Positions 8,487-23,912 are shown, counted from the first letter of the stretch. The stretch: DNA of 64,000 nucleotides from Solirubrobacterales bacterium (GCA_020438355.1 JAGQUT010000007.1:1-64000), one strand, 5' to 3'. The notes: generated from the letters alone by a model not told the origin. Numbers and translations: made by a program.

Positions 8487-8508
8487 CTACGAGTACCCTG
8501 ATAGCCCG

Positions 8509-9177
8509 ATGCCTTCGTCTTCCAGATCCCGGTCGGAGAATCCTCTCCTTGTAGGCGAGGGAGAACGCCTCGCGCTCGGAGTGGCAGCGAGGCTTTCCCG
8601 GTATCTCCAGGTTCTGATCCAGGCCCGCAAAATGGGCCGGGAGACGATCTCCTCACAGGAGCTCTCCGAATACACCCACATCAACCCGACCCAGATACGC
8701 CGGGACCTCTCGGGATTCGGCAAGTTCGGCAAGCGTGGAGTCGGCTACCGGATCGATTACCTGATCGACGAGATCCGGAAGATCATGCGGACCGCCGGGC
8801 AACACAACATCGCTCTCTTCGGAGCCGGGAAGCTCGGTCAGGCGATCGCCGGTTCTGACGTCTTTGCCGACCACGGCTTCCGGATCGTCTCGCTCTTCGA
8901 CGTGGACCCCGAGATGATCGGCGAGCAGGTCGGCCAGTTGACGGTCCGGGACTTCTCCGAACTGAACGATGCGGTTGAAGAGGAAGCGATCGTCGTCGGC
9001 GTGCTCGCGGTGCCCTCTGCAGCGGCCCAGGAAGTCGCCGACGGCCTGGTGGAGGCTGGCGTCTCGGTGATCTTCAATTACACCGAGCAACTGCTCCAGG
9101 TTCCGCCCGAAGTTACCGTCCATACCTCGAGCCCGGCTGTGGACCTGCTTTACGCCCTCTACTTCTACCTGTCCTGA
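8509..9177 (+). CDS. rex: Redox-sensing transcriptional repressor Rex
   Basis: 222 aa from ATG 8509. N-terminal winged helix (LSRYLQVLIQA, TQIRRDLSGFGKFGKRGVGY), then an NADH-binding Rossmann domain (ALFGAGKLGQAI) and the C-terminal domain-swap helix ending VDLLYALYFYLS. Rex represses respiratory and fermentation genes and is released by NADH. An in-frame start at 8449 would overlap the glutaredoxin-like gene by 38 bases and add 20 unconserved residues. A weak TACCCT box 9 bases before the ATG may give a leaderless or short-leader transcript. Confidence 0.93.
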   Translation: MPSSSRSRSENPLLVGEGERLALGVAARLSRYLQVLIQARKMGRETISSQELSEYTHINPTQIRRDLSGFGKFGKRGVGYRIDYLIDEIRKIMRTAGQHNIALFGAGKLGQAIAGSDVFADHGFRIVSLFDVDPEMIGEQVGQLTVRDFSELNDAVEEEAIVVGVLAVPSAAAQEVADGLVEAGVSVIFNYTEQLLQVPPEVTVHTSSPAVDLLYALYFYLS

Positions 9178-9178
9178 A

Positions 9179-10327
9179 TTGTCAGATCACGGCCTGCTGG
9201 AAATGGACGAAGTGCGGGAGGTGTTCGACGCCTCCACGGATTTCACTATCGGACTCGAGGAAGAGTTCGCGATCCTCGACCCGGAATCCCTCGACCTTGT
9301 CGATCGCTACCCGGAGCTCTACGAAGCCGCCCGGCAGGATCCGGTTCTCGCTGAATCCGCCGCGGGGGAGCTGATCGCCTCCGAGATCGAGATCCGGTCG
9401 GGAAGGTCAGAGTCGATGAATGAAGCGGTGGCGAAGCAGGAGGAGAAGCGGCGCCACCTTTTCGCGATCGCCGCACGGAAGGAGGTGGCGCTTGCCTCCC
9501 TCGGTACCCATCCATGGGCCGACTACCTCGAACAGGAGATCATCGACACGCCCCACTACCAGCGCCTCAAGAAGGATCTGGGATGGGTCGCGAAGAGAAA
9601 CAACACCTGGAGTCTTCACGTTCACATGGGGATCCGTGGTGCTGACCGGGCGATCGCTGTCTGCGACAGGCTGAGGGAACTCCTGCCGATCCTGCTGGCT
9701 GCCTCGGCCAACTCGATCTTCCTCGACCGTCAGGACACCGGTCTCGCCTCGATCAGGACCGAGATCTTCACCCGGACCTTCCCCCGTTGCGGAGTGCCAG
9801 GGACCTTTCGGGACTGGGATGAGTACACACGCTTCATCGATGACCTCAAGCAGTTCGGATCCATTGTCGAAGCGACCCAGCTTTGGTGGTCAGTGCGTCC
9901 ACACCATGCTTTCGGCACGGTTGAGGTGAGGATCTGCGACGCCCAGACCACCGCTCAGGAGTCGACCGCCCTCGCGGGACTGATCTGTGCCGTGGTCGCC
10001 CAGACCGCGATCGACCTCGATGAAGGTCGCCAGGTCGATGAGCCACTTCGAGGAAGGCAGATCGAAGAGAACCTCTGGCGGGCGATCCGGCACGGACTCG
10101 ACGGGCAGATGATCGACTTCCGTGGAAGGCGCGAAATCGAAACCGTCCAGATGCTCGAGGAGGTCCTCGAGTGGACCGGGCCGGCGCGCAGTGGCCTGGG
10201 GATCGACGTTGAACTGCCGGAGCGAAATGGCGCCCGTCGAATGCGCGACCAGCTGGAGGCCGGTTCCACGATCGAGGAGATCTACCGGTCCACCGTCGAA
10301 GAGACGACGCGCACCTACTCGGCCTGA
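9179..10327 (+). CDS. Carboxylate-amine ligase, GCS2/YbdK family
   Basis: 382 aa from TTG 9179, one base after the rex stop; ATG 9203 is an equally plausible start. Signature FTIGLEEEFAILD, with SLHVHMG, AASANSIFL and the EVRICDAQTT block of the GCS2 (glutamate--cysteine ligase type 2) fold. Relatives include weak gamma-glutamylcysteine synthetases (YbdK) and EgtA of ergothioneine synthesis. No gshB, mshC or egtB-D genes are nearby, so the product cannot be assigned. The position after rex and a glutaredoxin-like gene favours a low-molecular-weight thiol role. Confidence 0.85.
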   Translation: MSDHGLLEMDEVREVFDASTDFTIGLEEEFAILDPESLDLVDRYPELYEAARQDPVLAESAAGELIASEIEIRSGRSESMNEAVAKQEEKRRHLFAIAARKEVALASLGTHPWADYLEQEIIDTPHYQRLKKDLGWVAKRNNTWSLHVHMGIRGADRAIAVCDRLRELLPILLAASANSIFLDRQDTGLASIRTEIFTRTFPRCGVPGTFRDWDEYTRFIDDLKQFGSIVEATQLWWSVRPHHAFGTVEVRICDAQTTAQESTALAGLICAVVAQTAIDLDEGRQVDEPLRGRQIEENLWRAIRHGLDGQMIDFRGRREIETVQMLEEVLEWTGPARSGLGIDVELPERNGARRMRDQLEAGSTIEEIYRSTVEETTRTYSA

Positions 10328-10361
10328 AGAAGCCGCCCGGGTCGTGGCGGGCTTCGCCATC

Positions 10362-10367
10362 TATTGT
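10362..10367 (+). promoter_or_regulatory. Leaderless -10 box for DUF1844-like gene
   Basis: TATTGT, 6 bases before the ATG at 10374. Confidence 0.5.
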
Positions 10368-10373
10368 TGAGCC

Positions 10374-10769
10374 ATGAGCGAAGAACCGATTGAAGACGCG
10401 GGAGGACCGCCGCCCCTGACCGATGAGGAACGGGCGATGCTGGAAGCGCAGATGAAGGAGATCAGGGTCGAGGATCTCCTCACCCAGACCGTCGCCAGCG
10501 TCCTCAACCTTTCGGCCCGCCGGATCGTCAAGGAAGACGAAGTCGACCTTGAACAGGCGCGGATCGGAATCGAAGCTGTCAGGGCGATCGTGAGCCTGCT
10601 GCCCGCAGAGGTCGGTCAGGCCATCGCCGATCCGCTGAGTCAGGTTCAGATGCTCTACGCGCAGAAGAGTGCCGAGAGCGGTGGCGGCGAGGAAGCGGGT
10701 ACCGGGGGAGACCAGGGTCCCGCGGGTCCCGATCCCGGCCCTTCGAAGCTCTGGACTCCCGGCAGCTGA
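10374..10769 (+). CDS. DUF1844-like small acidic protein
   Basis: 131 aa. The core (about 35-105) has VEDLLTQTVASVLNLSARRI and DLEQARIGIEAVRAIVSLL, the pattern of DUF1844, a short helical family of unknown role. The N-terminus is acidic and the C-terminus a Gly/Pro tail ending in SKLWTPGS. No signal peptide or membrane segment. Its own leaderless promoter suggests it is separate from rex and the GCS2 ligase. Function unknown. Confidence 0.65.
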   Translation: MSEEPIEDAGGPPPLTDEERAMLEAQMKEIRVEDLLTQTVASVLNLSARRIVKEDEVDLEQARIGIEAVRAIVSLLPAEVGQAIADPLSQVQMLYAQKSAESGGGEEAGTGGDQGPAGPDPGPSKLWTPGS

Positions 10770-10803
10770 GCGGACTGGATCGGCCCGCGAGCCGATTGCT
10801 CAG
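10766..10803. terminator. Nested hairpin shared by convergent stops
   Basis: CTGAGC (10766-10771) pairs with GCTCAG (10798-10803), and inside it ATCGGC pairs with GCCGAT. The structure overlaps the stop codons of both convergent genes; no T-tract, so a moderate terminator call. Confidence 0.45.
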
Positions 10804-11918
10804 TTCAGCTGTCCGGTCCTGAACCCGGTTGTTTCCACCGCGACCGTTTGGTTGCGGCCACTGTTCTTCGCCGTGTAGAGGGCCTGGTCGGCCCGGCTGA
10901 CCAGTTCTCGCACCGTTTCGGCGCCGTCCCATTCGGCGATGCCGGCCGAGCAGGTCACGGCATTGGCCACCTCGTCGCCGGGGTCTTCGGGCAGCGAGGT
11001 CCGAAGCCGCTCGACGATGGTTTTTGCTCCATCCAGATCCGTGTTTGGGAGGGTCAGCACGAACTCCTCACCGCCGTAACGGGCGATGTGGTCCTCGATC
11101 CGGGTCATTTCCTCCCAGTTCAGGGCGATGCGCCGCAGAAAGTCGTCACCGGCCTGATGGCCCTTGGCATCGTTGTACTGCTTGAAGTAATCGAGGTCGA
11201 GCATCGCCAGGCAGAGCGGCTGTGAGTGCCGCCTGGCCTGACCAACCGAACGACGGATGGCCCTTTCCCATCCCCGGCGGTTGTCGATCCCGGTCAGGGC
11301 GTCGGTCAGAGCCAGCTCTTCGATGATGCGCCCCCGCTCTTCGGCGAGGTTCCTTTCAAGGCGCATCCTGGTGACAAGATCCTGGATGACCACGCCGAGG
11401 ACCGTCGCCATCACGGCGAGCACAAGATCCTGTCGCCACACCGGGTTGAGCTCCACACCTTCCTCCGCCGTGGCGACCTGGGCGATTACTACAGCGGCCA
11501 CGACGCAGATGATCACGGTGATCAAGGCCCGCCTCGAACCGTAGACGGCGACGGCCAGCACCGGAATGAGGAGCAGCGGTCCGATTCCCGCTTCCAGTCC
11601 GTCGGTTCCACCACGCACCATGATCGCCCCGCCGAGGGCACCGAAAGGGGCGGCCAGCCAGAAGGAGGGATGGAGGAGGGCCACACCGACTCCCGCCAAT
11701 GCAAGAATCCACCCACCCAGGTACAGGGCCCAGTCGATTTCAGTCGATGAAATCAGGGTCACCGCGAAACAGACGGCTGTAATCAGGACGAACGCAATGC
11801 CATATCGGACCTGGTTATGCCGGTACTCCGTCACATCCTCATACCCCCGGTGGTTGGGGTGCATGCCGAATGGCCGGATTCTCAGGTTTTCGTACTTGAC
11901 GGTTCTCCCGTTCCTCAC
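10800..11918 (-). CDS. Membrane diguanylate cyclase (GGDEF)
   Basis: 372 aa. Residues about 38-180 hold five or six hydrophobic segments (a membrane sensor of no recognised type), then a short coiled linker and a GGDEF domain from about 200. The catalytic loop is GGEEF (282-286), preceded exactly five residues upstream by an RIED inhibitory I-site (273-276), so it should make c-di-GMP from two GTP and be product-inhibited. It is divergent from, and shares an 82-bp control region with, the operon whose glycosyltransferase carries a c-di-GMP-binding MshEN domain. The GTG at 11918 lacks a ribosome site and overlaps a TATAGG box; ATG 11864 is an alternative. Confidence 0.92.
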   Translation of the reverse strand: MRNGRTVKYENLRIRPFGMHPNHRGYEDVTEYRHNQVRYGIAFVLITAVCFAVTLISSTEIDWALYLGGWILALAGVGVALLHPSFWLAAPFGALGGAIMVRGGTDGLEAGIGPLLLIPVLAVAVYGSRRALITVIICVVAAVVIAQVATAEEGVELNPVWRQDLVLAVMATVLGVVIQDLVTRMRLERNLAEERGRIIEELALTDALTGIDNRRGWERAIRRSVGQARRHSQPLCLAMLDLDYFKQYNDAKGHQAGDDFLRRIALNWEEMTRIEDHIARYGGEEFVLTLPNTDLDGAKTIVERLRTSLPEDPGDEVANAVTCSAGIAEWDGAETVRELVSRADQALYTAKNSGRNQTVAVETTGFRTGQLN

Positions 11919-12000
11919 CTATAGTGGCCACTCACCGAAGGCAGGCTCTTACCGTTCATTGTTCTAGAGTCTGTCTTCCGCCGATATTATCGGGAGCCTG
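11919..12000. promoter_or_regulatory. Divergent control region of diguanylate cyclase and polysaccharide operon
   Basis: 82 bp between divergent starts. It has a perfect 10-bp palindrome AGTGGCCACT (11923-11932) abutting a minus-strand TATAGG box, and a plus-strand TATTAT box (11985-11990) within GATATTATC, then GGGAG before GTG 12001. A common regulator could bind the palindrome; inference only. Confidence 0.4.
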
Positions 12001-12534
12001 GTGGCCAAAGACCGTTCAAAAGAAATTCTCAAGGAAATCCGGAAGCTCAGGGAGGAAATGTCCGCCCGTCTCGACGCCCTCGAGGCTCGTGGTGGCGGCA
12101 GCCCTGTTCCGGTTCCCGGTTCTGGGCTAGAAGCTTCGACAGATCCCCACGGATCCCTTCCCGGGGTTCCCGTCAACAGCAGCGGGATCCCGATCAGCGA
12201 GCCCGCTCCGGTCGCCGAGAACTTCGAGTTGCCCACAGGAGGTGACGTCAGCGTCGTGGTTCGTCCCCTTCACGATCTGAGCCTGGCCCGGGTTGTCGAA
12301 GACGCGCTCTCAAACACCGAAGGTGTCGAGGAAGCGACTCTGCGCGAGCTTCGGGGTGACTCGGCCACCATCGACACAAAGGTTGATGAAGGCGTTTCCC
12401 TGATTTCCTCACTCCGTCGCAAGCTGCCGGTGGCATTTGACGTGACCGAGTCCTCCAGCGACTCGGTGACGATCGCACTGGCCCAACCGATGGGCGGGCG
12501 CGAGAGCGGCGTGGCCGCTCCCTCAGGCCTGTGA
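12001..12534 (+). CDS. Coiled-coil cytoplasmic protein, first gene of polysaccharide operon
   Basis: 177 aa, GTG start with GGGAG 4 bases before it. Residues 1-32 are a charged helix (ILKEIRKLREEMSARLDALEA), 33-78 a Gly/Pro/Ser linker, and about 82-162 a compact alpha/beta domain (VSVVVRPLHDLSLARVVEDAL ... SLRRKLPVAFDV). The protein at 21338-21799 has the same three-part layout and matching motifs, so they are paralogues. The C-terminal domain resembles small ligand- or partner-binding alpha/beta domains but I cannot name a family. Its stop overlaps the next start. It could be a scaffold for the glycosyltransferase complex (inference). Confidence 0.7.
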   Translation: MAKDRSKEILKEIRKLREEMSARLDALEARGGGSPVPVPGSGLEASTDPHGSLPGVPVNSSGIPISEPAPVAENFELPTGGDVSVVVRPLHDLSLARVVEDALSNTEGVEEATLRELRGDSATIDTKVDEGVSLISSLRRKLPVAFDVTESSSDSVTIALAQPMGGRESGVAAPSGL

Positions 12535-12800
12535 ACAACAGCGGCGGCGTATTCGGCGCGCTGATCTTCGTGATCGGCATACTCATCGCTTTTGCGCTGC
12601 TCTTCGGCTTTTTCCTGATCGTCCCGTTCTTCGTTTTCCTCGGCGGCATCATCTGGATGCTCGTCAGTGATCGCAAACGCGGCAACGGTGACGAGAGCAA
12701 CGGGAGCGGGAACGGGAGCGGTTCCACCGTCACCGCGACCGAGACCGAAACCGTGCAGACGGTCGAGACCACCACGGCAGTCCGCGAGGTCAACTCCTGA
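12531..12800 (+). CDS. Small two-helix membrane protein
   Basis: 89 aa, GTG start overlapping the previous stop. Residues about 7-47 are two closely spaced hydrophobic helices (FGALIFVIGILIAFALLFG, FLIVPFFVFLGGIIWMLV), then a basic turn (SDRKRG) and a 40-residue Gly/Ser/Thr-rich tail. Small membrane proteins of this sort often accompany polysaccharide synthases as accessory subunits. No family is recognised. Its stop overlaps the start of the glycosyltransferase gene (TGATG), so the two are probably made in fixed ratio. Confidence 0.7.
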   Translation: MNNSGGVFGALIFVIGILIAFALLFGFFLIVPFFVFLGGIIWMLVSDRKRGNGDESNGSGNGSGSTVTATETETVQTVETTTAVREVNS

Positions 12801-15019
12801 TGGTCACCTCGGTTGCCCAGCGCCTGCTTGTTCGTGACTCCACACACGGGGTCAGCGAGCGAATGGTCACGCTCAGCTCGGCGGTCGCGCACCTGCTGCC
12901 GGTCGAGATCTGCAGGCAGTACCACATAATTCCGATCGAATTCGACCGTGGCCTGCTGACCATGGCCGGCCCGCTCGTGTTCAACCCGGCCGCCGATCGA
13001 GCCGTACGCGAACAGACCGGTTACGAGACCCGGTGGCTTTTCGCCGACCAGACCGAGCTCGACCTGGCGATCGACAGGTTGTTCGCCGGCAACGGCAGGC
13101 CCGAAGGTGCCCAGTTCTCCGCCGAAGATCTCCTCAAGCACGGTCTCGCGGTTCCCCCTCGGCTCGGCGAGAGCCTCGCCAGCCAGGGCCTGGTGACTGA
13201 GGAACAGCTTGCGGAAGCGGTGGCCGAGCAGAACCGCACCGGCAGTCGCATCGGTGAAGTGCTGGTCCACGGTGGCGCCGTCGAGGAAACCGAGCTCCTG
13301 AGAGTCCTTTCAGAGCAGATGGACCTGCCGACCGTCGACCTTTCCGATTTTCACGCAGACAAGGCCCCGAGGGACGTCCTGCCCGATGAGATGTGTCACC
13401 GACTCCATTGCGTGCCGATCGCCATTGACGGGGAGAGCATCTACCTCGCCGTGGCTGACCGTCTGGACGAGGGTGAAGCTGAAGTAGAGAGTTACTCAGG
13501 GCGCAAAGTCCAGCAGTTCCTTGCCACCCCGAACCAGATATCCAGACTCCAGCGCGAAATCAACCGCGAGCGCTACACGGAGACGGCCACGCTTGGCCTG
13601 AAGGAGAAGTTCCCGGACAGTTCTGCCCATCAGGTCCTGAGCGGAGGCCAGAAGGTCTTTCTCGTCGTCCTGCTTCTGGTTTTCCTCGGATTCCTCATCT
13701 GGAATCCGATTCCGACCATGGCGACCGTGTTCGCGCTTCTCGCGATCTTCTACACCCTTACTTCCGCCTACCGGCTGATTGCCGGTTACGCCGCCCTCGG
13801 TCACCGCTATCTGGTCGACACCAGCGACGACGTCCTCGAGGCCATGGATGAGCGCGATCTGCCCGTCTACACGGTTCTGGTGCCGCTCTTCCGCGAGGCA
13901 GCGGTCATTCCGTACCTCGTCGCCGGTATCGAGTCCCTCGACTACCCGAAGACCAAGCTTGACGTGCGCCTCCTTTGCGAGGAAGACGACGAGGAAACGA
14001 TCGAGGCCATCATGGATCTCGACCTTCCTCCGCACTTCAACGCGATCATCGTGCCCCCGTCGCAGCCCCAGACCAAGCCGAAAGCATGCAATTTCGGCCT
14101 GCTCGGCGCCAAGGGCGAGTACGTGGTCATCTACGACGCCGAGGACCGCCCGGACCCGCTTCAGCTGAAGAAGGCCGTCCACATGTTCCGGAACCTCGAT
14201 GACTCGATCGTCTGCATCCAGTCGAAGCTCAACTTCTTCAACCAGCAGACAAACCTCCTCACCCGTTGGTTCTCGATCGAGTACTCGATGCTCTTCGACC
14301 TTGTCCTGCCCGGCCTTGACGCACGGAGGGATCCGATTCCGCTGGGTGGCACCTCGAACCACATCAAGCGGGAAGAACTGGTCGAGGTCGGTGGCTGGGA
14401 CCCCTTCAACGTGACCGAGGACGCCGATCTCGGCGTCCGTCTGCATCAGGCCGGTTTCCGGACCACGATGATGGACTCGACCACCTACGAGGAAGCGAAC
14501 ACGAACGTGGGGAACTGGGTTCGCCAGCGTTCCCGGTGGATCAAGGGTTATCTGCAGACCTGGCTGGTCTACATGCGCAACCCGTTCCGGTTCCTCTCCA
14601 ACGTCGGACTGAAGGGCTTCCTTTCCTTCCAGCTCCTGGTCGGCGGCACCTTCACCTTCCTCATCAACCCGATCTTCTGGTTCCTGACCACGGTCTTCGC
14701 CCTGACCCAGCTTGGAATCATCCAGGACTTCTTCCCCGGCTGGGTCTACTTCCTCGCCGCATCACAACTCTTCTTCGGCAACTTCGTCTTCGTCTACCTC
14801 GGTCTGGCAGCCTCGGTTCGCCGGGGCGACTACAGCCTCGCTCCGTACGCGCTTTTCCTGCCCTTCTACTGGGGACTGATGTCAGTCGCAGCCTGGAAGG
14901 GCTTCGGCCAGCTTGTCACCAACCCGTTCTACTGGGAGAAGACCGAACACGGTCTCGATCTCGGTGGTGGCGCGGAACATGCCCACTCGACCACTCCGCG
15001 TAAGTCTGGAGCCGCCTGA
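12800..15019 (+). CDS. c-di-GMP-binding (MshEN) family 2 processive-type glycosyltransferase
   Basis: 739 aa. N-terminus: GspE_N-like half-domain (about 23-95), then a canonical MshEN domain with two 24-residue motifs, 121-144 (RLGESLASQG...) and 150-173 (RIGEVLVHGG...), separated by the standard 5-residue spacer, then a second GspE_N half (177-258). MshEN binds c-di-GMP in MshE and in the NfrB glycosyltransferase. Two membrane helices (286-330) lead to a GT2 domain with EEDD (394-397), DAED (446-449), TED (539-541) and QRSRW (576-580), the D,D,D,QxxRW set of cellulose-synthase-like enzymes. Three or more C-terminal helices follow. It probably polymerises and extrudes a polysaccharide on c-di-GMP signal. 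Sugar unknown. Confidence 0.88.
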   Translation: MVTSVAQRLLVRDSTHGVSERMVTLSSAVAHLLPVEICRQYHIIPIEFDRGLLTMAGPLVFNPAADRAVREQTGYETRWLFADQTELDLAIDRLFAGNGRPEGAQFSAEDLLKHGLAVPPRLGESLASQGLVTEEQLAEAVAEQNRTGSRIGEVLVHGGAVEETELLRVLSEQMDLPTVDLSDFHADKAPRDVLPDEMCHRLHCVPIAIDGESIYLAVADRLDEGEAEVESYSGRKVQQFLATPNQISRLQREINRERYTETATLGLKEKFPDSSAHQVLSGGQKVFLVVLLLVFLGFLIWNPIPTMATVFALLAIFYTLTSAYRLIAGYAALGHRYLVDTSDDVLEAMDERDLPVYTVLVPLFREAAVIPYLVAGIESLDYPKTKLDVRLLCEEDDEETIEAIMDLDLPPHFNAIIVPPSQPQTKPKACNFGLLGAKGEYVVIYDAEDRPDPLQLKKAVHMFRNLDDSIVCIQSKLNFFNQQTNLLTRWFSIEYSMLFDLVLPGLDARRDPIPLGGTSNHIKREELVEVGGWDPFNVTEDADLGVRLHQAGFRTTMMDSTTYEEANTNVGNWVRQRSRWIKGYLQTWLVYMRNPFRFLSNVGLKGFLSFQLLVGGTFTFLINPIFWFLTTVFALTQLGIIQDFFPGWVYFLAASQLFFGNFVFVYLGLAASVRRGDYSLAPYALFLPFYWGLMSVAAWKGFGQLVTNPFYWEKTEHGLDLGGGAEHAHSTTPRKSGAA

Positions 15020-16941
15020 TGGCTAACGGTCGAATGCAGAGCATGGCCAATGGCGGGTCTACCGTTGTCGAGAAGACTCAGACTAGGCGCCGGGTAACCA
15101 GCAAGTACATCGACCCCGAGGTCGCTTCGCACATCAGCGAGGTGCCTCCGGAGCCGAGGCCGTTCAGTCCTGACGCACCAAGGGCCGGCCTCGAGAGCGG
15201 CCTCATCTTTGTATTTTTCGCGATCGTTTATGGCGTTCTCGGCTACTTCACGTTGACCGAAGGCCGGATCGTCGACTTCGTTTCTCTCAGTCACCTGAAC
15301 GAGGCTTACATGGTGCTGTGGAACGATCCGCCGAGACTGGCTGCTGTTGGTCTCGATGCCGGAGCGTTCAGTTCGATCCTCTATTTCCCGTTCTCGGTGG
15401 TGAAGCCGGTCGCCACCTCGCTTGTGGCCCTGCCGGTGATGAGCGCCCTTGCCGCGGCCCTTCTGATGGCTTCTCTGAACACGCTGATGCGGGTCTGCGA
15501 CATCAACCTCGTCTTCCGGATCATCCTCCTGGTGCTCTTCGGCCTGAATCCTCTTTTTGCCTTCTACGCCGGAAACGGCGACCCCGCGATGCTTGGTCTC
15601 GTCCTGCTGGGCGTGGCGATGACCTCGACCATTTCCTGGGCGGCCACAGACCAGACGAGACACCTTGCCGGAGCGGGTCTGGCGATGGGCCTGGCCGTGA
15701 TGGTCGATTACGGCTTCATCCTCGTCGGGGTCGGCTTCATGCTCGCCTTCATGGTGATCAGCGTCCAGAAGAAGGACGTCGGGCTCAAGGTCCGTTCGAC
15801 CCTGCTGCTGTTCCTGACCCCGCTGGTCTATGCGTTGCTCTTCTGGTGCCTGATGAACTGGGTCCTGCTGGGCAACCCGTTCGAATGGGTCACCGCCCAG
15901 AACGGAGTCATCCAGGTCAACACGACTGGTGTTCTGGATTCCCTCGGAACCGACTTTGGTGGCAGCATGGGGGATCTCTTCGAGGTCACGTTGGGAGTGG
16001 CCCCGCTGGCTTTCGTCGCCGCGATCATGCTGATCATTGGCTCGATAGCCAAGAAGGATGTGACCGGATGGGGCCTGCTCTTCGTCGGTCTATGCATCGC
16101 AGCTGCTCCGGTGATCCGCTCGGTCGGAGCCGATCAGGCGAACCTCTTCAATCTGGCCTACGGTCTTCCGCTGGCGGTGTTTGCGGTCGGGGCCGTCGCC
16201 TGGTTCGGAAAGGGCGCCTGGAGCCCGATCGCCGCGGCGATCATCGGGATCGGCCTGATTGCCGCCATTCCTCTTTCCTGGAACGCGATGCAGGACTACC
16301 GCTTCCAGAACCAGGCACAGGCCTTCACGCGCTGGGTCGAAGGCTGGAACTCCCAGGAGGGCAAGAGCTCGCTCGGTGACTACACCGTCGGCATTGATCC
16401 TGAACTGGCGATGGCCAACTACATCAACAACGAGATTCCCCAGAAATCAAGGTCGATCCTCGTTGACGAGAACTTCAGTTATGGCGTGATGATCACCTCC
16501 GGTCGTCCGGCCAACTTCTACGATCGCGCCGACGAGGGCGAGGATGACTGGCAGGCTGCCATCGACAATCCGTTCGGTGAGGTCAGCTACATGCTGATAA
16601 CGGTCAGCCGTGCCGGTGACCAGATCGCCAAGAAGTGGCCCACCGCAGTCGAGGGAGGACAGGCCGGAATGAGGCCGATCTTCCGGACCGACCGGTACGT
16701 GCTGGTCCAGGTTTCAGAGACCGCGCCGCCCACCGGTGACCGGGACACGGACACCAACACCCCCAGCAACACGCCCAATCCGGTCACCCCGTCGTCGCCG
16801 ATCAACCCGAACGGGCCCAGCCTGACCACGCCTTCACAGACCCAGACCGACGTCACCCCGACCTCGCCGGTGTCGCCGGCCCCCAATACCGTCGAGCCGA
16901 ACGATGGAACCTCCTCCGCACCCGCCCTGGAGGGTGAATAG
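15019..16941 (+). CDS. GT-C-like polytopic membrane protein with extracytoplasmic C-terminal domain
   Basis: 640 aa. A cytoplasmic 55-residue N-terminus is followed by about ten hydrophobic helices (60-430), a soluble domain (about 435-570) and a Pro/Thr/Ser-rich tail. The arrangement, including an acidic residue in the first external loop (LSHLNEAYMVL), resembles lipid-linked-sugar-dependent GT-C enzymes of the PMT/ArnT type, though the usual Asp-Glu pair is not clear. It could add side sugars to the polymer or transfer it to an acceptor (inference). Start and stop overlap both neighbours. Confidence 0.6.
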   Translation: MANGRMQSMANGGSTVVEKTQTRRRVTSKYIDPEVASHISEVPPEPRPFSPDAPRAGLESGLIFVFFAIVYGVLGYFTLTEGRIVDFVSLSHLNEAYMVLWNDPPRLAAVGLDAGAFSSILYFPFSVVKPVATSLVALPVMSALAAALLMASLNTLMRVCDINLVFRIILLVLFGLNPLFAFYAGNGDPAMLGLVLLGVAMTSTISWAATDQTRHLAGAGLAMGLAVMVDYGFILVGVGFMLAFMVISVQKKDVGLKVRSTLLLFLTPLVYALLFWCLMNWVLLGNPFEWVTAQNGVIQVNTTGVLDSLGTDFGGSMGDLFEVTLGVAPLAFVAAIMLIIGSIAKKDVTGWGLLFVGLCIAAAPVIRSVGADQANLFNLAYGLPLAVFAVGAVAWFGKGAWSPIAAAIIGIGLIAAIPLSWNAMQDYRFQNQAQAFTRWVEGWNSQEGKSSLGDYTVGIDPELAMANYINNEIPQKSRSILVDENFSYGVMITSGRPANFYDRADEGEDDWQAAIDNPFGEVSYMLITVSRAGDQIAKKWPTAVEGGQAGMRPIFRTDRYVLVQVSETAPPTGDRDTDTNTPSNTPNPVTPSSPINPNGPSLTTPSQTQTDVTPTSPVSPAPNTVEPNDGTSSAPALEGE

Positions 16942-18209
16942 TGCCTGAAGGCAGGATGCCCCGCTGGGTCCTCGTGATCGGCCTCTCGGCGTTGCTCGGG
17001 TTGCTGGTTGCTGCCTGTGGGTCCAACGACGACGCGGGCAACAACGACACGAATACCGCGGCGAATGCGACTGGAGCCACGGGCGCTACGTCCGGGGGAG
17101 TCAATGCGACTACGGGGAGCACCGAACCTGGAACGGGCGCGGCGGTGACGGCCGGCACGGATCCGGTCGATTCCGGTCGACTCTTCTCGGCTGACAGTCC
17201 CTGGAACACCACTGTTGAGGGACTTCCCGTGGCGGAGAATTCCGACCGGATGCTCGAGCTCGCAACCGAGCGGAAAGCCGCCCGTGAAGAGCCGGGACAG
17301 GAAGGCGTGGTCACCTTCACTCGTCAGATCGTCAACGAAGGCCTGTTCATAAACTCGAAGGTCTGGGCCCCTCTGATCGTCGCCGCCAACACCCCGGGTT
17401 CGGTGGCAACCAAGTTCGTCTGTCGCCAGTCGAAGTGCAGCTCGCCCGACCCCAAGGTGCCGGAGACGTTGACGATTCCGGCCAACACCACGCCGGACCC
17501 CCGTTTCGACGGCTGGCTCAGCGTTATCGACCGCGAGAACGGCATGGGATATGACTTCTGGCGTGCCCGCCGCGAAGGTGACGGCACGATCTCCTACCAG
17601 TTCGGCAAGGCCTGGACCCTTGACGGACCGGGTTTCAGCAAGCCGGTGGGCATCGACCCCGAGCGCGCCGTTGGCGCCAGAGGATCCGGCCTGCCTCTCT
17701 TCGCCGGTGTAATCGGTCCGGTCGAACTTGAAGCCGGCCAGATCAACCACGCTCTTGCGATCTCGGTGCCTGGCATCGCCCGTCGTAACTTCGTCCAGCC
17801 CGCCTCGGTTACCGACGGTGTCGGCAAGGAAAAGTCGCTCCCGGCCGGGGCCCGACTCAGGCTCAGGGCCGACGTCACAGTGAACGAGAAGGCACTCCGC
17901 AGCCTCAAGGGCCAGCGCCGCCGTTCGGCCGACGCAATCCTGACCGCCCTCAGGACGTATGGCGCGATCGTGGTTGACCGGGCGGCCGTCCCCAGCCTTT
18001 ACGCGCCCCTCGGGACCTCCTCGAAGATCCTGCGCGGCAGTGAGCTTTCATGGCTCAAGCTCAGCGACTTCGAAGTGATCACTCTGCCCCAGATCTACAA
18101 GGATCCGCCGCTCAGCAAGGTGGGCCTCGAAGGTCCCGAGACCGGCGGAGTAAACGAGCAGGTGCAGTCAGGTAGCGCCGCCGGAAACACCGTTGGAGGT
18201 GGACTGTGA
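16941..18209 (+). CDS. Secreted lipoprotein, possible carbohydrate-active domain
   Basis: 422 aa, GTG start sharing one base with the previous stop. Signal peptide with lipobox LLVAAC at about 21-26, then a 45-residue Asn/Thr/Gly linker and a globular domain (75-390). Motifs ENGMGYDFWRA, ARGSGLPLFAGVIGPVEL and GQINHALAISVPG recall a conserved secreted family found in actinobacteria and fungi, which I know only as uncharacterised. Placement in a glycosyltransferase operon suggests it binds or modifies the exported polysaccharide. No catalytic residues can be assigned. Confidence 0.6.
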   Translation: MPEGRMPRWVLVIGLSALLGLLVAACGSNDDAGNNDTNTAANATGATGATSGGVNATTGSTEPGTGAAVTAGTDPVDSGRLFSADSPWNTTVEGLPVAENSDRMLELATERKAAREEPGQEGVVTFTRQIVNEGLFINSKVWAPLIVAANTPGSVATKFVCRQSKCSSPDPKVPETLTIPANTTPDPRFDGWLSVIDRENGMGYDFWRARREGDGTISYQFGKAWTLDGPGFSKPVGIDPERAVGARGSGLPLFAGVIGPVELEAGQINHALAISVPGIARRNFVQPASVTDGVGKEKSLPAGARLRLRADVTVNEKALRSLKGQRRRSADAILTALRTYGAIVVDRAAVPSLYAPLGTSSKILRGSELSWLKLSDFEVITLPQIYKDPPLSKVGLEGPETGGVNEQVQSGSAAGNTVGGGL

Positions 18210-19627
18210 GGCAGCCCATGAAGAAGAAGGCTGCGGCCCTCATTTCCGCCTCGGCCGTACTCGGTCTACTGGTGGCTGGCTGTGGCCTCAACCCGGATGA
18301 CGCTCCGCCGTCTGCTGGCAGCAGCGGTGCCGGTGCAATCTACGTTCCACCGTCATCAGGCAAGACCCCGGTAGAAAGGGCCAAGCCCACCCCTCGCGAG
18401 GCCGGAACCATTCGCGTCGCAGGCAAGACCCAGGGTACTTTGACTCCGGACCTGATCAAGACCTACAACGCCACCGGCGGCACGGCGAACATCGTGGTGA
18501 GCGACAAGAACGAGAACCAGGCCTTCGAGCAGTTCTGCGCGGGGCAGGCTGACATCGTCGACTCCGCGCGTCCGATCTCCGAGGCCGAGTACCGGCAGTG
18601 CATCGCCAACGGCATCCAGCCGGTCCAGTTCCAGGTCGCTTCCGACGCGGCCGTCCTGGCGATCAAGAACGAGACCGACGTCGGCACCGACTGCCTCAGC
18701 TTCGAAGAGGTACGCGACATCTTCAGGGCAGGGTCGACCATCAACAGCTGGAGCCAGGTCGGTTACGGCCACGAACTCGGTGGAGACGCCAATGAACCCC
18801 GGATGAAGGTCGCTGGCCCGGACGAGGCCTCCAACGTGTTCGGCTTCTTCGGCCAGTACGTGCTCGGTGATCCCGAGCCGACCATCCTGGTCATGAGGAG
18901 CGACTATCAGGCCTACCCGACCGACGCCGGTGTTCGCCGCGCTGTGGTCGGTTCCAACAAGGACTTCAAGGCGGCAGAGCAGCTCGAGCGCTCGCGCCAG
19001 ATCTACCAGGACATTCTCGACTCTCTCGCCGAGAATCGCCGGGCTGTTCGTGATGCCGAGGCCGAGGTCGCCAAGGGCATCGTCGACGAGCGTCCGCCGG
19101 CCGATCAGGCTCGTGACCGCGCCAAACTCGCCAAGGCTGAAGCCAACCTCCGCAACCTCGAGAAGTCGCTGGCACCAGCCCGCCGGTACTTCCAGCAGAA
19201 CCGGGCCGCGCTTCGCCGTCTCGAAGAGGTCCGGGGGACAATGGGACTCTTCCGTTTCTCTTACTACGAGGCCTTCGAAGAGCAGCTGCGTCCGATGGAG
19301 GTGAGCGCCTCCAATGACTTCGCCAAGCCCGAGTGCGTCTTCCCCTCGCAGGCGACCGTCACCAACGCGACCTACCCGCTGGCCCGTCAGCTCCTGCTGA
19401 CGGTCAACTACCGAAACATGAAGGACCCGGACATCAACGAATTCCTGGTCCAGAGCCTTTCCCGCTCCCAGCGGCTGGCCGAGGATGCCGCGCTGGTTCC
19501 CCTGCCGGACGAGACCCAGGCCACCGAACTCGCATGGCTCAACGGCACCAGCGAACCGGACATCATCTTCTACCAGTCCGGTGCTGCCCCAGAGGTCGGA
19601 ACGAACCAGTCCGCCAGTGGCGAGTAG
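18206..19627 (+). CDS. PstS-like substrate-binding lipoprotein with coiled-coil insertion
   Basis: 473 aa, GTG start (GGAGG upstream) overlapping the previous stop. Lipobox LVAGC (C26). The type II binding-protein fold of phosphate-binding PstS is visible: GTIRVAGKTQGTLTP, FCAGQADIVDSARPIS, LSFEEVRDIF and GTMGLFRFSYYEAF. Between the last two, residues about 253-343 are a charged, heptad-rich insertion not found in PstS. No pstC/A/B or other permease lies nearby, so it is unlikely to be a transport subunit. It may be a surface sensor or structural part of the polysaccharide machine (inference). Confidence 0.75.
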   Translation: MRQPMKKKAAALISASAVLGLLVAGCGLNPDDAPPSAGSSGAGAIYVPPSSGKTPVERAKPTPREAGTIRVAGKTQGTLTPDLIKTYNATGGTANIVVSDKNENQAFEQFCAGQADIVDSARPISEAEYRQCIANGIQPVQFQVASDAAVLAIKNETDVGTDCLSFEEVRDIFRAGSTINSWSQVGYGHELGGDANEPRMKVAGPDEASNVFGFFGQYVLGDPEPTILVMRSDYQAYPTDAGVRRAVVGSNKDFKAAEQLERSRQIYQDILDSLAENRRAVRDAEAEVAKGIVDERPPADQARDRAKLAKAEANLRNLEKSLAPARRYFQQNRAALRRLEEVRGTMGLFRFSYYEAFEEQLRPMEVSASNDFAKPECVFPSQATVTNATYPLARQLLLTVNYRNMKDPDINEFLVQSLSRSQRLAEDAALVPLPDETQATELAWLNGTSEPDIIFYQSGAAPEVGTNQSASGE

Positions 19628-19700
19628 CCGCCAAGCCGTCATTTACCCTTAATCTGGCCGCTACTTGGCCTTGAAAGTCGGTTTAACGGGGGGTGACATC

Positions 19701-21308
19701 ATGTTTCCTGTGTTTCGGCGTCTAGCAACAGCTCTCGTTCTTCTCGGTCTGGGTTTCGCACTGGCCGCGATGCCGGCTGCCTCAAACGGCGCCAAGCGGC
19801 AGGGCCCCTGCTCGACACTGCCCATCAACATCAAGATGAGCACTCATGATCCGACAGGCCTGCTAGAGGACGGCTACGCCTGGATCTACGTGAATCCGAA
19901 GGGCAAGATCCGCTCGGCGATGGTCCGGGTGATGCGCGGAAACAGAACTTACGCTCGCGGGCGGATCGTCGGTCGGATGGCCTCTGGCAGGACCACGCTC
20001 GTGAGGATGCATGTGAATCAGCGCATGCTCTCGGGCAAGTACCGGATCAAGGTGACCGCCGGCAAGCCCGGAAAGTGTGGCCACCGGGTCAGCAAGTCGA
20101 GACCTTGGCGCTTCACCAGTCCGAGCCTCGGGCTCAAGGCGATTCCCGTCAGCACAAGGATTGGTGACAACGTCGATGTGGTCCGCTTCGCCCTGAGGCC
20201 GGTCCGCCGCACCAAGGTCGGTCGCACCAGGGTCTCCCTGATCGGTCCGGGCGGTGGCGTGATAAGCCAGCAGGTGATCAACTCGATCGGCAACAAGCAG
20301 ATCCTGGCCGAGCTTCCGATCAAAGGCAAACTGAAGGCTGCCAAGTACAGCGTCCGACTCAGCGGACAGGACCTGGCAACCGGCAACTACCGCGTGTCGA
20401 GCCAGTCGTGGCGATTCGGGAAGGGCGGCGGAGGCGCCAAGCCGGTGCCGACCACAGGTCAGCTCACCCAGAAGATCGCGGTTGACTGGACCAACGGCAA
20501 GTGGGAAGAGCGCCAGGTGGGCGGATTCATCGCCCCCGGCATCGGATACGGCGAGGTCGTCTGCAGCCCATACCAGCAATGGGTGCGCTTCTACCCCTCG
20601 GATGCCGGTCGCGAGAGCGCAATGATGACCTGGACCTACAAGAACTGGGACTTCAACAAGGGCTGGGAAAAGTCCGTGCGGGAAGCCAAATACTCGGAAG
20701 GAACCGGTCCCGACTTCCGCGAAGGCATGAACAAGTTCGGCCCGACCGAAAAGCACTCAACCGGCACTTTCCAGGGAATCATCTCCGACCGTGGCCCGAT
20801 CGACGGCCCCGGCGGAGTGGCCCTTGCGCCCCCGACTACTTTCGACCTGGACTGGGTCTGGGACTTCAACAAGGAAGGCAGCTCCTACTGCCATGTGAAG
20901 GCGACTTTCAGGACCCAGACCGATCAGCTGACCGACCCTCTGGCCCGTTCCGTCCAGATCGTCTGGCGTGGCGATGCCAACGCGACCCCGGCGAACACGG
21001 TCAGTGACGTCGACTTCCCCGGTCTCGGAAAGGTCCAGGCGATCTGCCAGGGCGGACCCAACGGATACCGTCGCCTGATCGTCGATTCAGCGATCGGGGG
21101 GAGCGTCTACACGCGCGAGGGTTCCGAGGACTACAAGGTCAGCCAGGCGAACGGTCCGCTGGTCATGAGGCTGCCGAACAACGGAATGCTTTTCGTCCAG
21201 ATGGACAACGGTGACCGCATTCTGGTCTCGTCCCGCTGGAAGGTGAACGACCCGGTTGCCTCGAACAACTGGTGCGTCGTTTCCGCCCAGGTCTACAGCC
21301 CTTCATAA
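19701..21308 (+). CDS. Secreted protein of unknown function, end of polysaccharide operon
   Basis: 535 aa from ATG 19701, which has GGGGGGTGA 4 bases upstream; the open frame begins at a TTG at 19665 without a ribosome site. Signal peptide (about 1-28, ending AMPAASNG). Residues 30-240 look like two beta-rich modules with many Arg/Lys (GKYRIKVTAG, KYSVRLSGQ); 255-535 is a Trp-rich beta domain (SPYQQWVRF, MMTWTYKNWDF). A possible TAATCT -10 box lies at 19650-19655, so it may have its own promoter. I do not recognise the family; a cell-wall or matrix protein is plausible. Confidence 0.65.
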   Translation: MFPVFRRLATALVLLGLGFALAAMPAASNGAKRQGPCSTLPINIKMSTHDPTGLLEDGYAWIYVNPKGKIRSAMVRVMRGNRTYARGRIVGRMASGRTTLVRMHVNQRMLSGKYRIKVTAGKPGKCGHRVSKSRPWRFTSPSLGLKAIPVSTRIGDNVDVVRFALRPVRRTKVGRTRVSLIGPGGGVISQQVINSIGNKQILAELPIKGKLKAAKYSVRLSGQDLATGNYRVSSQSWRFGKGGGGAKPVPTTGQLTQKIAVDWTNGKWEERQVGGFIAPGIGYGEVVCSPYQQWVRFYPSDAGRESAMMTWTYKNWDFNKGWEKSVREAKYSEGTGPDFREGMNKFGPTEKHSTGTFQGIISDRGPIDGPGGVALAPPTTFDLDWVWDFNKEGSSYCHVKATFRTQTDQLTDPLARSVQIVWRGDANATPANTVSDVDFPGLGKVQAICQGGPNGYRRLIVDSAIGGSVYTREGSEDYKVSQANGPLVMRLPNNGMLFVQMDNGDRILVSSRWKVNDPVASNNWCVVSAQVYSPS

Positions 21309-21325
21309 ACCTCGCTGCAGCGGGT

Positions 21326-21331
21326 TAGAAT
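21326..21331 (+). promoter_or_regulatory. Leaderless -10 box for coiled-coil paralogue
   Basis: TAGAAT, 6 bases before GTG 21338; supports that start. Confidence 0.5.
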
Positions 21332-21337
21332 GCCCGC

Positions 21338-21799
21338 GTGGGCACAGATGCCGGAAAGACGGATGCCGCAGCAGTCGATGACCTTCGCGCCTCGGTGGGC
21401 CGGGTCAGCCTCGAAGTCCAGGCGCTGGCTGACCGCGTCCAGGAACTGATCGACGCGGTCGAGGCATTGGCCCCCGGGGGCAAGGCGGAACGCCCGGTGC
21501 CAGCCGCGTCTCCCGCCAGTGGCGAGATCGGAGTTAGCGTCTCCCCTTTGCCGGAGCTGGCGATGGCCGCTGTCGCCGAAACCGCACTCCGAGGCCTTCC
21601 CTCGGTGCGGAAGGTGGTCTCGGTAGAGCGTTCAAACAATCAGGCCACATTCGTGCTTGAAATCGAGGACGACACAGAGCTCGTCAGCGAGATGCGCCGG
21701 GCCATGCCGGTTCCGATCACCGTCGACACGGCCCCCGACGGATCCCTGAAGGTGGTTCTGGAGTGGGCCTGGGGAAGGTCCGCCGCCAGCGCCGGCTGA
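21338..21799 (+). CDS. Coiled-coil protein, paralogue of the operon's first gene
   Basis: 153 aa, GTG start fixed by a leaderless -10 box. N-terminal heptad helix (VDDLRASVGRVSLEVQALAD), Pro/Ala linker, and a C-terminal alpha/beta domain (VSVSPLPELAMAAVAETAL ... EMRRAMPVPITVD) matching the protein at 12001-12534 in order and motif spacing (V-PL-L--A-V---AL, then RR--P). The two bracket the polysaccharide operon. Function unknown; the shared domain may bind a common partner. Confidence 0.7.
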   Translation: MGTDAGKTDAAAVDDLRASVGRVSLEVQALADRVQELIDAVEALAPGGKAERPVPAASPASGEIGVSVSPLPELAMAAVAETALRGLPSVRKVVSVERSNNQATFVLEIEDDTELVSEMRRAMPVPITVDTAPDGSLKVVLEWAWGRSAASAG

Positions 21800-21810
21800 G
21801 CTGATGCGAG

Positions 21811-23712
21811 TTGGCTGAACGCATCCCGCGGGACCAGAGCCTGAGCCGAATCCACGGCTCAAGCGCACTCTTCGCTGCCGCATACGGCAACGTCGGCTCC
21901 TCGATCTACTACGCGCTCGGGGTCACTGCCGCCTTCGCTTTGGGGCTGACTCCGGTCGCCTTCATGATCGCGGGACTCATCTTCATCTGCACCGCGGCCA
22001 CCTATGCCGAGGCGACCGTGATGTACCCGGAGGCCGGGGGATCCTCGTCGTTCGGGCGACATGCCTTCAACGAACTGGTCAGCTTCATCGCCGCCTGGGC
22101 GCAGATGCTGAATTACACGATCACGGTCGCCATCTCGGCCTACTTCGTGCCGCATTACCTGGCCGTCTTCTGGGAACCGCTCGGTTACGCTCCGGGCGAC
22201 ATCATCGGTGGCGCCGCGGTGATCGTCTTTCTTGCCTGGCTGAACATTCGCGGAGGCCAGGAATCGGCGCGGCTCAACATCATTCTCGCCGTCGCTGACC
22301 TCGCCACCCAGGTGATCCTCGTCCTGATCGGCATGTTCCTCGTCTTCAACAGCGAGATCCTGATCGAGAACGTGAACCTCGGGGTTGCCCCCACCTGGCC
22401 CGATTTCGCTCTCGGTATAGCGGTCGGAATGATCGCCTACACCGGCATCGAGACGATTTCCAACATGTCGGAGGAAGCCAAGGATGCCGCCAAGTCAGTG
22501 CCGCAAGGGGTGGCGCTGGTGGTGATCGCGGTACTTGCGCTTTATCTCTTCATCCCGATCGTCGCTCTTTCGGCGATGCCAGTAGAACTGAACCAGGCCG
22601 GCGAGTACGTGACCGAGCTGGGGACCACCTACGCCGACGACCCGATCCTGGGGATAGTCGAGAACCTGGACCTGTCGAGTGGCCTGACGGACATTCTCAA
22701 GATCTACGTCGGCATTCTGGCCGCCGTGATTCTCGTAATCGCGACCAATGCGGGACTGATCGGAGTCTCCCGCCTCAGTTACTCGATGGGTCAGTACAGA
22801 CAGTTGCCCGAAGCAATCCGCCAGATCCATCCGACCTACCGGACTCCCTACATTTCGATCATCTTCTTCGCGATTCTCGCGATCGTGACCCTCTTGCCGG
22901 GACAGGCCGCGTTCCTGGCCACGATGTACTCGTTTGGCGCGATGCTCTCCTTCACGATCGCTCACGCGGCGGTCATACGGCTACGGCAAAAGATGCCCGA
23001 TGCCAAGAGGGAATGGAAACCTCGCGGTAACTTCAAGGTGAGGGGGATATTGATCCCGATCACCGCGGTCCTTGGTGGTCTCGGCACCTTCCTCGCATGG
23101 CTCGTCGTCATGGCCCTCAACCCGGCGACCCTCGCGGTCGGGTCACTCTGGCTTCTGATCGGGCTTGCCGGTTACGTCCTCTATCGAAGGCATCAGGAAC
23201 TGCCCCTGACCGGAACCGTCAAAGTGCTGCTCCCCGAGCCGCTTGGGGTCGAAGAGATCGAGTACAAGTCAGTGATCGTCGCTTTCCCGGCCGACCAGCC
23301 GTTCTCCGAGGACGTTATGGCCACTGCCGCGAAACTGACCTCCGACCGGCGCCGCGGTATTCACATCACGGCTTTGCTGACCGTGCCGACCCACTTGCCT
23401 CTCGAAAGCTCGATGGTCGAAGAAGAGAAGAAGGCCCAGGAGAAGATCGAACGGGCGAAACTGATCGCGGGACTCAGGGTTTCCGGCAGCGTCGAGAGAG
23501 TCAGACCGGGACAGGAGGGTTACTTCCTGGCCCGCCAGGCGACTACCTCCAAAGCTGCCGCAATCGTTATCGGTCTCCGTTCGCGGGGCGGCATTCCCCA
23601 GTACAGCAAGACCCTCGAGACGGTCATGCGTGAGCGACCCTGCCGTGTAATTGTTGTCACGGAAGACCCGTCAGCGACCAATGGAGCCGGCCGGGAGCCG
23701 GTGAACGCGTGA
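21811..23712 (+). CDS. APC-superfamily permease with Usp-like C-terminal domain (possible K+ importer)
   Basis: 633 aa, TTG start at 21811. Twelve hydrophobic helices (about 18-465) with the APC core NVGSSIYYALG and GGSSSFGRHAFNELVSF, then a soluble domain (490-625: KSVIVAFPADQP, AAIVIGLRSRGG, PCRVIVVTED) of universal-stress-protein type. This permease-plus-Usp layout is that of the KUP/KimA-type potassium importers as well as some amino-acid permeases. The operon continues with a second such permease and two TrkA proteins, which favours potassium. Confidence 0.82.
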   Translation: MAERIPRDQSLSRIHGSSALFAAAYGNVGSSIYYALGVTAAFALGLTPVAFMIAGLIFICTAATYAEATVMYPEAGGSSSFGRHAFNELVSFIAAWAQMLNYTITVAISAYFVPHYLAVFWEPLGYAPGDIIGGAAVIVFLAWLNIRGGQESARLNIILAVADLATQVILVLIGMFLVFNSEILIENVNLGVAPTWPDFALGIAVGMIAYTGIETISNMSEEAKDAAKSVPQGVALVVIAVLALYLFIPIVALSAMPVELNQAGEYVTELGTTYADDPILGIVENLDLSSGLTDILKIYVGILAAVILVIATNAGLIGVSRLSYSMGQYRQLPEAIRQIHPTYRTPYISIIFFAILAIVTLLPGQAAFLATMYSFGAMLSFTIAHAAVIRLRQKMPDAKREWKPRGNFKVRGILIPITAVLGGLGTFLAWLVVMALNPATLAVGSLWLLIGLAGYVLYRRHQELPLTGTVKVLLPEPLGVEEIEYKSVIVAFPADQPFSEDVMATAAKLTSDRRRGIHITALLTVPTHLPLESSMVEEEKKAQEKIERAKLIAGLRVSGSVERVRPGQEGYFLARQATTSKAAAIVIGLRSRGGIPQYSKTLETVMRERPCRVIVVTEDPSATNGAGREPVNA

Positions 23713-23912
23713 AGTCGGGCGGAGCCTACGACCGTTCGGTCAAGGCGATTTCAGGCGTATATGGCGTTATCGGTGTCGTGATCCTTGTCCTCACGATTGT
23801 TCAGGGAGGGGGCCCGACTTCGGTCGGCTTCCTGATCGGCCTGGCTTTCATTGCCGTCGGGGTCGGCCGGTACCTGATTCAGCGAAAGATCGCGAACGGG
23901 CCTCCCGAATGA
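23709..23912 (+). CDS. Small two-helix membrane protein between permeases
   Basis: 67 aa, GTG start overlapping the upstream stop, and its own stop overlapping the next ATG. Two hydrophobic helices (VIGVVILVLTIVQGG and VGFLIGLAFIAVGVGRYLI) flanked by basic residues. Its placement within a coupled pair of permease genes suggests an accessory subunit. No family is recognised. Confidence 0.65.
   Translation: MKSGGAYDRSVKAISGVYGVIGVVILVLTIVQGGGPTSVGFLIGLAFIAVGVGRYLIQRKIANGPPE

What the first reader, a model, noticed from the sequence alone, without database searches (positions are those of the whole stretch)
10800..21799. A c-di-GMP-controlled surface polysaccharide system with unfamiliar partners
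A membrane diguanylate cyclase is divergent from six overlapping genes (12001-19627) plus two further genes: coiled-coil protein, small membrane protein, MshEN-GT2 synthase, GT-C-like protein, secreted lipoprotein, PstS-like lipoprotein, secreted beta protein, and a second coiled-coil paralogue. Known c-di-GMP-regulated polymers (Bcs, Pel, Alg, Pga, Nfr) use different subunits. The gene set, domain order and location in a Gram-positive-type genome do not match any of these that I recognise.
Basis: partly seen in the sequence, partly recalled or inferred. Interest (0 to 1): 0.85.

Follow-up and report, generated by a model that had tools for sequence, protein, structure and literature searches.

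The report
c-di-GMP-switched sugar-polymer secretion operon
This actinobacterium carries a tightly packed operon that very probably makes and exports a surface sugar polymer when the signal c-di-GMP rises; its two-enzyme core occurs across many bacterial phyla and resembles poorly understood biofilm (xag) and iron-stalk (sfz) genes, but here it has a set of uncharacterised outer partners in place of the usual helper protein BcsB.

Summary
A membrane diguanylate cyclase is divergent from six 1-4 bp-overlapping genes plus two more. The synthase has N-terminal MshEN with both c-di-GMP motifs intact and all processive-GT2 motifs. It belongs to a conserved unit: the GT-C-like gene follows the synthase in 79 of 80 loci, and synthase, GT-C, lipoprotein and PstS-like keep this order in 41 of 42. 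A two-helix membrane protein precedes the synthase in 44 actinobacterial loci. 'Matches nothing known' is only partly right: the MshEN-GT2/GT-C core matches the xagBC and sfz/sfb clusters in domain and gene order, and Gram-negative relatives sit beside BcsB. The actinobacterial form lacks BcsB and instead has a lipoprotein of unknown fold, a PstS-like lipoprotein with altered ligand motifs and a coiled-coil insert, and a beta-sandwich protein. The c-di-GMP-contact residues are kept in Solirubrobacterales and largely lost in Nocardioides, Bacteroidota and alphaproteobacteria. Best reading: c-di-GMP-activated, synthase-dependent export of a surface polysaccharide, a new variant of a known kind. 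Polymer, partner functions and c-di-GMP binding are inferred, not shown.

The parts
10800..11918 (-). Membrane diguanylate cyclase, about 5 TM + GGDEF (GGEEF, intact RxxD I-site); divergent gene
   Evidence: Pfam GGDEF 3.7e-41; motifs; TM estimate; kept in the same place in L033-L036, L038, L039
11919..12000 (.). 82-bp divergent intergenic region (a weak sigma70-like match at 11896-11925 on + overlaps its left edge)
   Evidence: Consensus scan only; 3 matches versus 1.1 expected in the region, so not evidence of function
12001..12534 (+). Coiled-coil + small alpha/beta (weakly HMA-like) protein, CC1
   Evidence: HMA 0.061, below cut-off; profile search finds it beside the synthase in Solirubrobacterales, Conexibacter and Patulibacter loci; also in L147 and L148
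12531..12800 (+). Small two-TM membrane protein (SMP), translationally coupled to the synthase
   Evidence: Found upstream of GT2 on the same strand in 44 loci, usually overlapping it by 1-4 bp
12800..15019 (+). Synthase: N-terminal MshEN (motifs 121-144 and 150-173) + membrane processive GT2 (TED 539-541, QRSRW 576-580)
   Evidence: Pfam MshEN 2.5e-23, GT2 2e-20; motifs; PDB PilF/MshE N domains and cellulose synthases
15019..16941 (+). GT-C-like polytopic glycosyltransferase, about 12 hydrophobic segments
   Evidence: Downstream of GT2, same strand, in 79 of 80 loci; PMT_2 in 4 of 18 homologues; hydropathy
16941..18209 (+). Lipoprotein of unknown fold with many invariant polar residues (LPP)
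   Evidence: Alignment A1, 29 sequences; no Pfam/NCBIfam hit; no PDB fold match for a moderate model, pLDDT 67.6
18206..19627 (+). PstS-like lipoprotein with a coiled-coil insertion (about 250-335) and altered ligand motifs (PST)
   Evidence: PBP_like_2 9e-14; 4jwo alignment: GSST, SGTGGG and SGTF segments not conserved
19665..21308 (+). Secreted all-beta protein: two Ig/macroglobulin-like sandwiches (about 50-255) + conserved C-terminal beta domain (BETA)
   Evidence: AlphaFold pLDDT 83.8; fold matches generic to Ig-like tandems; homologues in 40 loci, duplicated in some
21338..21799 (+). Second coiled-coil/HMA-like paralogue, CC2
   Evidence: 30% identity to CC1 over 88 aa, E=1e-10; conserved at the 3' end in L033-L039

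Best explanation
The locus encodes a synthase-dependent exopolysaccharide system switched on by c-di-GMP. The membrane cyclase (probably with input from the other cyclases and phosphodiesterases of the genome) raises c-di-GMP. c-di-GMP binds the tandem MshEN motifs on the cytoplasmic N-terminus of the GT2 and activates it, and the GT2 polymerises a sugar nucleotide and threads the chain through its own membrane channel. The small two-TM protein is an obligate synthase subunit. The GT-C protein works on the outer face, probably adding sugars from a polyprenyl-phosphate donor to the emerging chain. The two lipoproteins and the beta-sandwich protein receive, modify, anchor or organise the polymer at the cell surface, taking the place that BcsB occupies in the Gram-negative relatives. 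Shown by sequence: gene set, domains, motif integrity, conserved order, no PilZ and no other MshEN protein found in the genome. Inferred: c-di-GMP binding, processive polymerisation, GT-C decoration, all partner roles. Polymer identity is open: a beta-linked glycan is favoured (GH5 gene beside the Nocardioides loci, BcsB beside the Gram-negative ones), and mannose is possible (GDP-mannose pyrophosphorylase-like genes beside Bacillota and Atribacteria loci).
For: Domains and motifs; cyclase with I-site divergent from the operon and conserved there in six relatives; the GT2 is the only MshEN protein and no PilZ is found in a genome with 5 GGDEF and 3 EAL matches; GT2-GT-C pair in 79/80 loci, GT2-GTC-LPP-PST order in 41/42, SMP upstream of GT2 in 44 loci; in a 396-genome phylum sample the strongest GT-C, LPP and PST matches are the same five genomes; GH5 upstream in Nocardioides; BcsB upstream in Bacteroidota, alphaproteobacteria and a deltaproteobacterium; GDP-mannose pyrophosphorylase-like and polyprenyl-phosphate GT2-like neighbours in Bacillota. 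Precedents: NfrB, an MshEN-GT2 that binds c-di-GMP and makes EPS (PMC8669469); xagB needed for elevated biofilm in a Xanthomonas rpfG mutant (PMC3609779).
Against: No biochemistry. The window GT-C has no Pfam hit of its own, and PDB profile searches with the GT-C and LPP alignments found nothing convincing. c-di-GMP contact residues are lost in most branches of the family, so the MshEN domain can persist without that ligand. The sugar-nucleotide clues differ between lineages. No sugar-nucleotide gene lies among the nine genes.
Confidence: 0.7

Rival explanations
1. Protein or lipid glycosylation: the GT2 makes a lipid-linked sugar or short glycan and the PMT-like GT-C transfers it to the co-encoded lipoproteins or beta protein; no free polymer is made.
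For: GT-C relatives carry the protein-mannosyltransferase-type PMT_2 domain; three secreted proteins are co-encoded; polyprenyl-phosphate GT2-like genes lie between GT2 and GT-C in Paenibacillus and Sporolactobacillus.
Against: The GT2 has the TED/QRSRW motifs of processive membrane synthases, QRSRW being invariant in the family alignment, and its best named matches are cellulose and PNAG synthases; BcsB beside relatives points to chain export.
Confidence: 0.13
2. The system makes a surface polymer but c-di-GMP is not the switch; the MshEN region is structural or reads another signal, and the neighbouring cyclase is coincidental.
For: Motif residues are eroded in Nocardioides (0-1 of 6 key positions), Mucilaginibacter (0) and alphaproteobacteria (0-1) although the domain persists; the cyclase neighbour is absent outside the window-like clade and a few others.
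Against: In the window-like clade all six key positions are kept in 7 of 9 sequences and a cyclase with intact motifs is divergent; no other MshEN or PilZ effector was found in the genome.
Confidence: 0.12
3. The PstS-like gene makes this a phosphate-starvation system, e.g. a phosphate-free wall polymer or a phosphate sensor.
For: PBP_like_2/PstS-family match.
Against: No pst transporter genes among the nine proteins; the segments that carry the S/T-rich motifs in 4jwo (GSST, SGTGGG, SGTF) are not conserved and a coiled-coil hairpin is inserted.
Confidence: 0.05

Closest known systems
xagABCD EPS cluster of Xanthomonas and the xag-like stalk cluster sfz1-4/sfb1-4 (PMC4643136, PMC8250860, PMC3609779)
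   Same: GT2 with an N-terminal type-II-secretion/MshEN-type domain followed by a ~500 aa gene of unknown function; BcsB-like gene upstream in sfz/sfb as in the Gram-negative loci here; tied to EPS, biofilm or stalk
   Different: No BcsB or XagA here; extra SMP, LPP, PST, BETA and CC genes; tandem MshEN motifs intact. Sequence identity to XagB/C and Sfz2/3 could not be tested with the collections available
NfrB-NfrA-YbcH of E. coli (PMC8669469, PMC8669472)
   Same: GT2 synthase regulated through an MshEN domain; single MshEN protein in the genome
   Different: MshEN is C-terminal in NfrB and N-terminal here; no NfrA/YbcH; Nfr partners are not GT-C or lipoproteins
Bcs cellulose synthase (BcsA-BcsB)
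   Same: Processive GT2 core; c-di-GMP activation; relatives of this synthase sit beside BcsB; the GH5 neighbour in Nocardioides is analogous to cellulose-locus hydrolases
   Different: MshEN instead of PilZ; no BcsB in the window operon; added GT-C
B. subtilis ydaJKLMN EPS locus
   Same: c-di-GMP-controlled EPS in a Gram-positive with local cyclase-receptor pairing (PMC7064775, abstract only)
   Different: From general knowledge: the receptor is the degenerate-GGDEF protein YdaK, not a synthase-fused MshEN; no GT-C/LPP/PST set

Membership tests
xag / sfz (MshEN-GT2 + downstream ~500 aa membrane protein) | GT2 with N-terminal T2SS/MshEN domain and TED/QxxRW | tested here: met
   description of Sfz2
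xag / sfz (MshEN-GT2 + downstream ~500 aa membrane protein) | Downstream gene homologous to XagC/Sfz3 | tested here: inconclusive
xag / sfz (MshEN-GT2 + downstream ~500 aa membrane protein) | BcsB-like partner (sfz1) | tested here: not met
   None among the nine window proteins; present beside relatives L097, L101, L094
Nfr | MshEN C-terminal to GT2; NfrA and YbcH partners | tested here: not met
   MshEN is N-terminal; no such partners in the operon
Bcs cellulose synthase | BcsA PilZ domain and BcsB | tested here: not met
   No PilZ match in the genome; no BcsB in the operon; CelA model 67.6 bits versus cut-off 699
Pel / Pga / Alg | PelD-G, PgaB/D or Alg44 subunits | tested here: not met
   No such Pfam/NCBIfam hits among the nine proteins; PgaC model far below cut-off
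PstS phosphate-binding protein | S/T-rich ligand segments as in 4jwo | tested here: not met
   Not conserved in the alignment; TIGR02136 90 bits versus cut-off 206.6
GT-C / PMT_2 | PMT_2 domain | tested here: inconclusive
   No match for the window protein; 4 of 18 homologues match
MshEN c-di-GMP receptor | Two 24-residue motifs 5 residues apart | tested here: met
   121-144 and 150-173, motif as in PMC5013675
MshEN c-di-GMP receptor | Binds c-di-GMP | not testable with these tools
   Needs a protein binding assay

The most novel reading that the evidence does not exclude
Actinobacteria replaced the BcsB export/anchoring subunit with a distinct dedicated apparatus (two-TM subunit, lipoprotein of new fold, PstS-derived scaffold with a coiled-coil arm, beta-sandwich surface protein) around an MshEN-GT2/GT-C core that makes a branched surface polymer by joint cytoplasmic (nucleotide-sugar) and extracytoplasmic (polyprenyl-sugar) synthesis; the core's c-di-GMP switch was lost stepwise in Nocardioides and elsewhere.
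Probability: 0.35. Interest if true: 0.7.

Novelty: new variant of a known kind. Interest (0 to 1): 0.55.

Why it matters
It ties an uncharacterised actinobacterial operon to a widely spread but biochemically unstudied synthase family that probably includes the candidate iron-stalk genes. It gives a testable role (GT-C glycosyltransferase) for the 'unknown function' gene downstream of such synthases, identifies outer partners that may replace BcsB, and offers a family in which gain and loss of c-di-GMP control can be followed residue by residue.

Tried and rejected
Pfam, NCBIfam and PDB profile searches for LPP, BETA, GT-C and CC gave no characterised relative of the window proteins. Foldseek and VIA-align with the LPP model gave nothing convincing (best Z 3.8, including a transglycosylase-like protein over 176 residues); the model is only moderate, so a known fold is not excluded. 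BETA fold hits are generic Ig-like tandems such as complement and alpha-2-macroglobulin and were not read as function; its C-terminal domain was not folded alone. Considered and rejected: a type IV pilus ATPase function (no other MshEN protein in the genome); PstS as a phosphate importer (altered motifs). Automatic gene calling in the high-GC Nocardioides loci was unreliable, so homologues there were located by profile search over all ORFs. Literature searches found no description of this actinobacterial set.

Full report
WHAT IS THERE. The cyclase (10800-11918, -) has about five membrane segments, a GGEEF active site and an RxxD I-site five residues upstream. On the + strand six genes overlap by 4, 1, 1, 1 and 4 bp, the pattern of translational coupling, and two more follow within 40 bp. 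The synthase (12800-15019) has two MshEN matches and a GT2 domain. Its motifs RLGESLASQGLVTEEQLAEAVAEQ (121-144) and RIGEVLVHGGAVEETELLRVLSEQ (150-173) fit the published 24-residue pattern with the published 5-residue linker, and TED and QRSRW are present. LPP and PST have lipoboxes (read from the sequence); BETA has a signal peptide without a lipobox Cys.

CONSERVATION. A scan of named genomes gave 80 loci. Profile searches show the GT-C-like gene downstream of the synthase on the same strand in 79 of 80 (in Paenibacillus and Sporolactobacillus one GT2-like gene lies between). LPP and PST follow in the order GT2-GTC-LPP-PST in 41 of 42 loci that have all of them (the exception, L048, has LPP and PST upstream of GT2). 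The small membrane protein lies upstream of GT2, same strand, in 44 loci, usually overlapping its start. The unit sits in different surroundings: rex/gcs-like genes and APC permeases in the window-like loci, succinyl-CoA-ligase-like genes (named by eye) in L147, other genes in Nocardioides, so its integrity is not mere inherited gene order. In an independent sample of 396 genomes of the phylum, the strongest matches to GT-C (E<1e-90), LPP (E<1e-50) and PST (best five) are the same five genomes. In the class the GT-C is patchy, 12 of 199 genomes at E<=0.001, one of them marginal.

THE FAMILY. A GT2-domain tree places the window in a well-supported Solirubrobacterales group inside an actinobacterial clade of 47 rows, with Bacillota next and Bacteroidota, Kryptonia, alpha- and deltaproteobacteria further away. 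Partners differ by lineage. BcsB (PF03170) is beside relatives in Mucilaginibacter, Erythrobacteraceae and a deltaproteobacterium; the Kryptonia loci have a gene of the same sequence cluster as the Mucilaginibacter one, not scanned itself. GDP-mannose pyrophosphorylase-like genes are beside Paenibacillus, Atribacteria and Halanaerobium relatives, and polyprenyl-phosphate-type GT2 genes beside the Bacillota ones. A GH5 gene is directly upstream in Nocardioides.

c-di-GMP INPUT. Six polar/glycine contact positions were scored. Seven of nine window-like sequences keep all six (one keeps five; L040 has an unreadable stretch there), all four other Solirubrobacterales keep six, Patulibacter (four readable) and Aeromicrobium stalagmiti keep four, Nocardioides-type sequences one or none, Mucilaginibacter none, alphaproteobacteria at most one. 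This counts residues on an alignment and does not measure binding. The window genome has five GGDEF and three EAL matches, no PilZ, and no MshEN outside this protein, so the synthase is the only effector found of the two families tested; other receptor types were not tested.

PARTNERS. GT-C: about 12 hydrophobic segments; PMT_2 in 4 of 18 homologues but not in the window protein, so the label rests on homology. LPP: many invariant residues (W88, N89, D190, W192, D205, W207, R208, R210, R247, H270, D346, R347 among them), enzyme-like, but no known fold found with a moderate model. PST: PstS-like with altered ligand segments and a helical insert. BETA: two Ig-like sandwiches plus a conserved C-terminal beta domain. 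CC1/CC2: paralogous, coiled coil plus a small alpha/beta domain.

COMPARISON. Kato et al. 2015 describe bcsB-xagB-xagC-xagD in stalk-forming iron oxidisers, similar to xagBCD of Xanthomonas. Koeksoy et al. 2021 describe Sfz2 as an N-terminal T2SS-type domain plus GT2 with TED/QxxRW, and Sfz3 as unknown, about 500 aa. The Gram-negative loci found here have that order, and the Kryptonia locus L085 also has a CotH gene, a domain reported for Sfz6. The window core is therefore most likely the same kind; sequence identity to Xag/Sfz was not tested. NfrB has its MshEN at the other end of the protein.

VERDICT. A c-di-GMP-activated, synthase-dependent surface polysaccharide system; new variant of a known kind; polymer and partner functions open.

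Noticed in passing
window 21811-25849: Two APC-type permease genes (named by eye) follow CC2 on the same strand at an 11-bp gap and are conserved there in the window-like loci, but not in the other groups.
   Followed up: partly
window 8449-10769: rex-like, GCS2-type glutamate-cysteine-ligase-like and DUF1844-like genes (named by eye) lie just upstream and keep this order in L033-L036 and L039.
   Followed up: partly
L146 (G544:C81): Two GT2 + GT-C pairs in one 20-kb stretch.
   Followed up: no
L143, L144, L145: MshEN-GT2-type synthases in other genomes of the class for which the GT-C profile found no neighbour in the stretch.
   Followed up: partly
L054, L055, L060, L061: The beta-sandwich gene is duplicated or triplicated in tandem.
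   Followed up: no
L085:3171-6008: CotH-domain gene next to the BcsB-like/GT2/GT-C locus in Kryptonia, echoing the CotH domain reported for Sfz6.
   Followed up: partly
L009 (G051): Three distant LPP homologues within about 15 kb on one contig of another actinobacterial family, suggesting a wider secreted family of unknown function.
   Followed up: no
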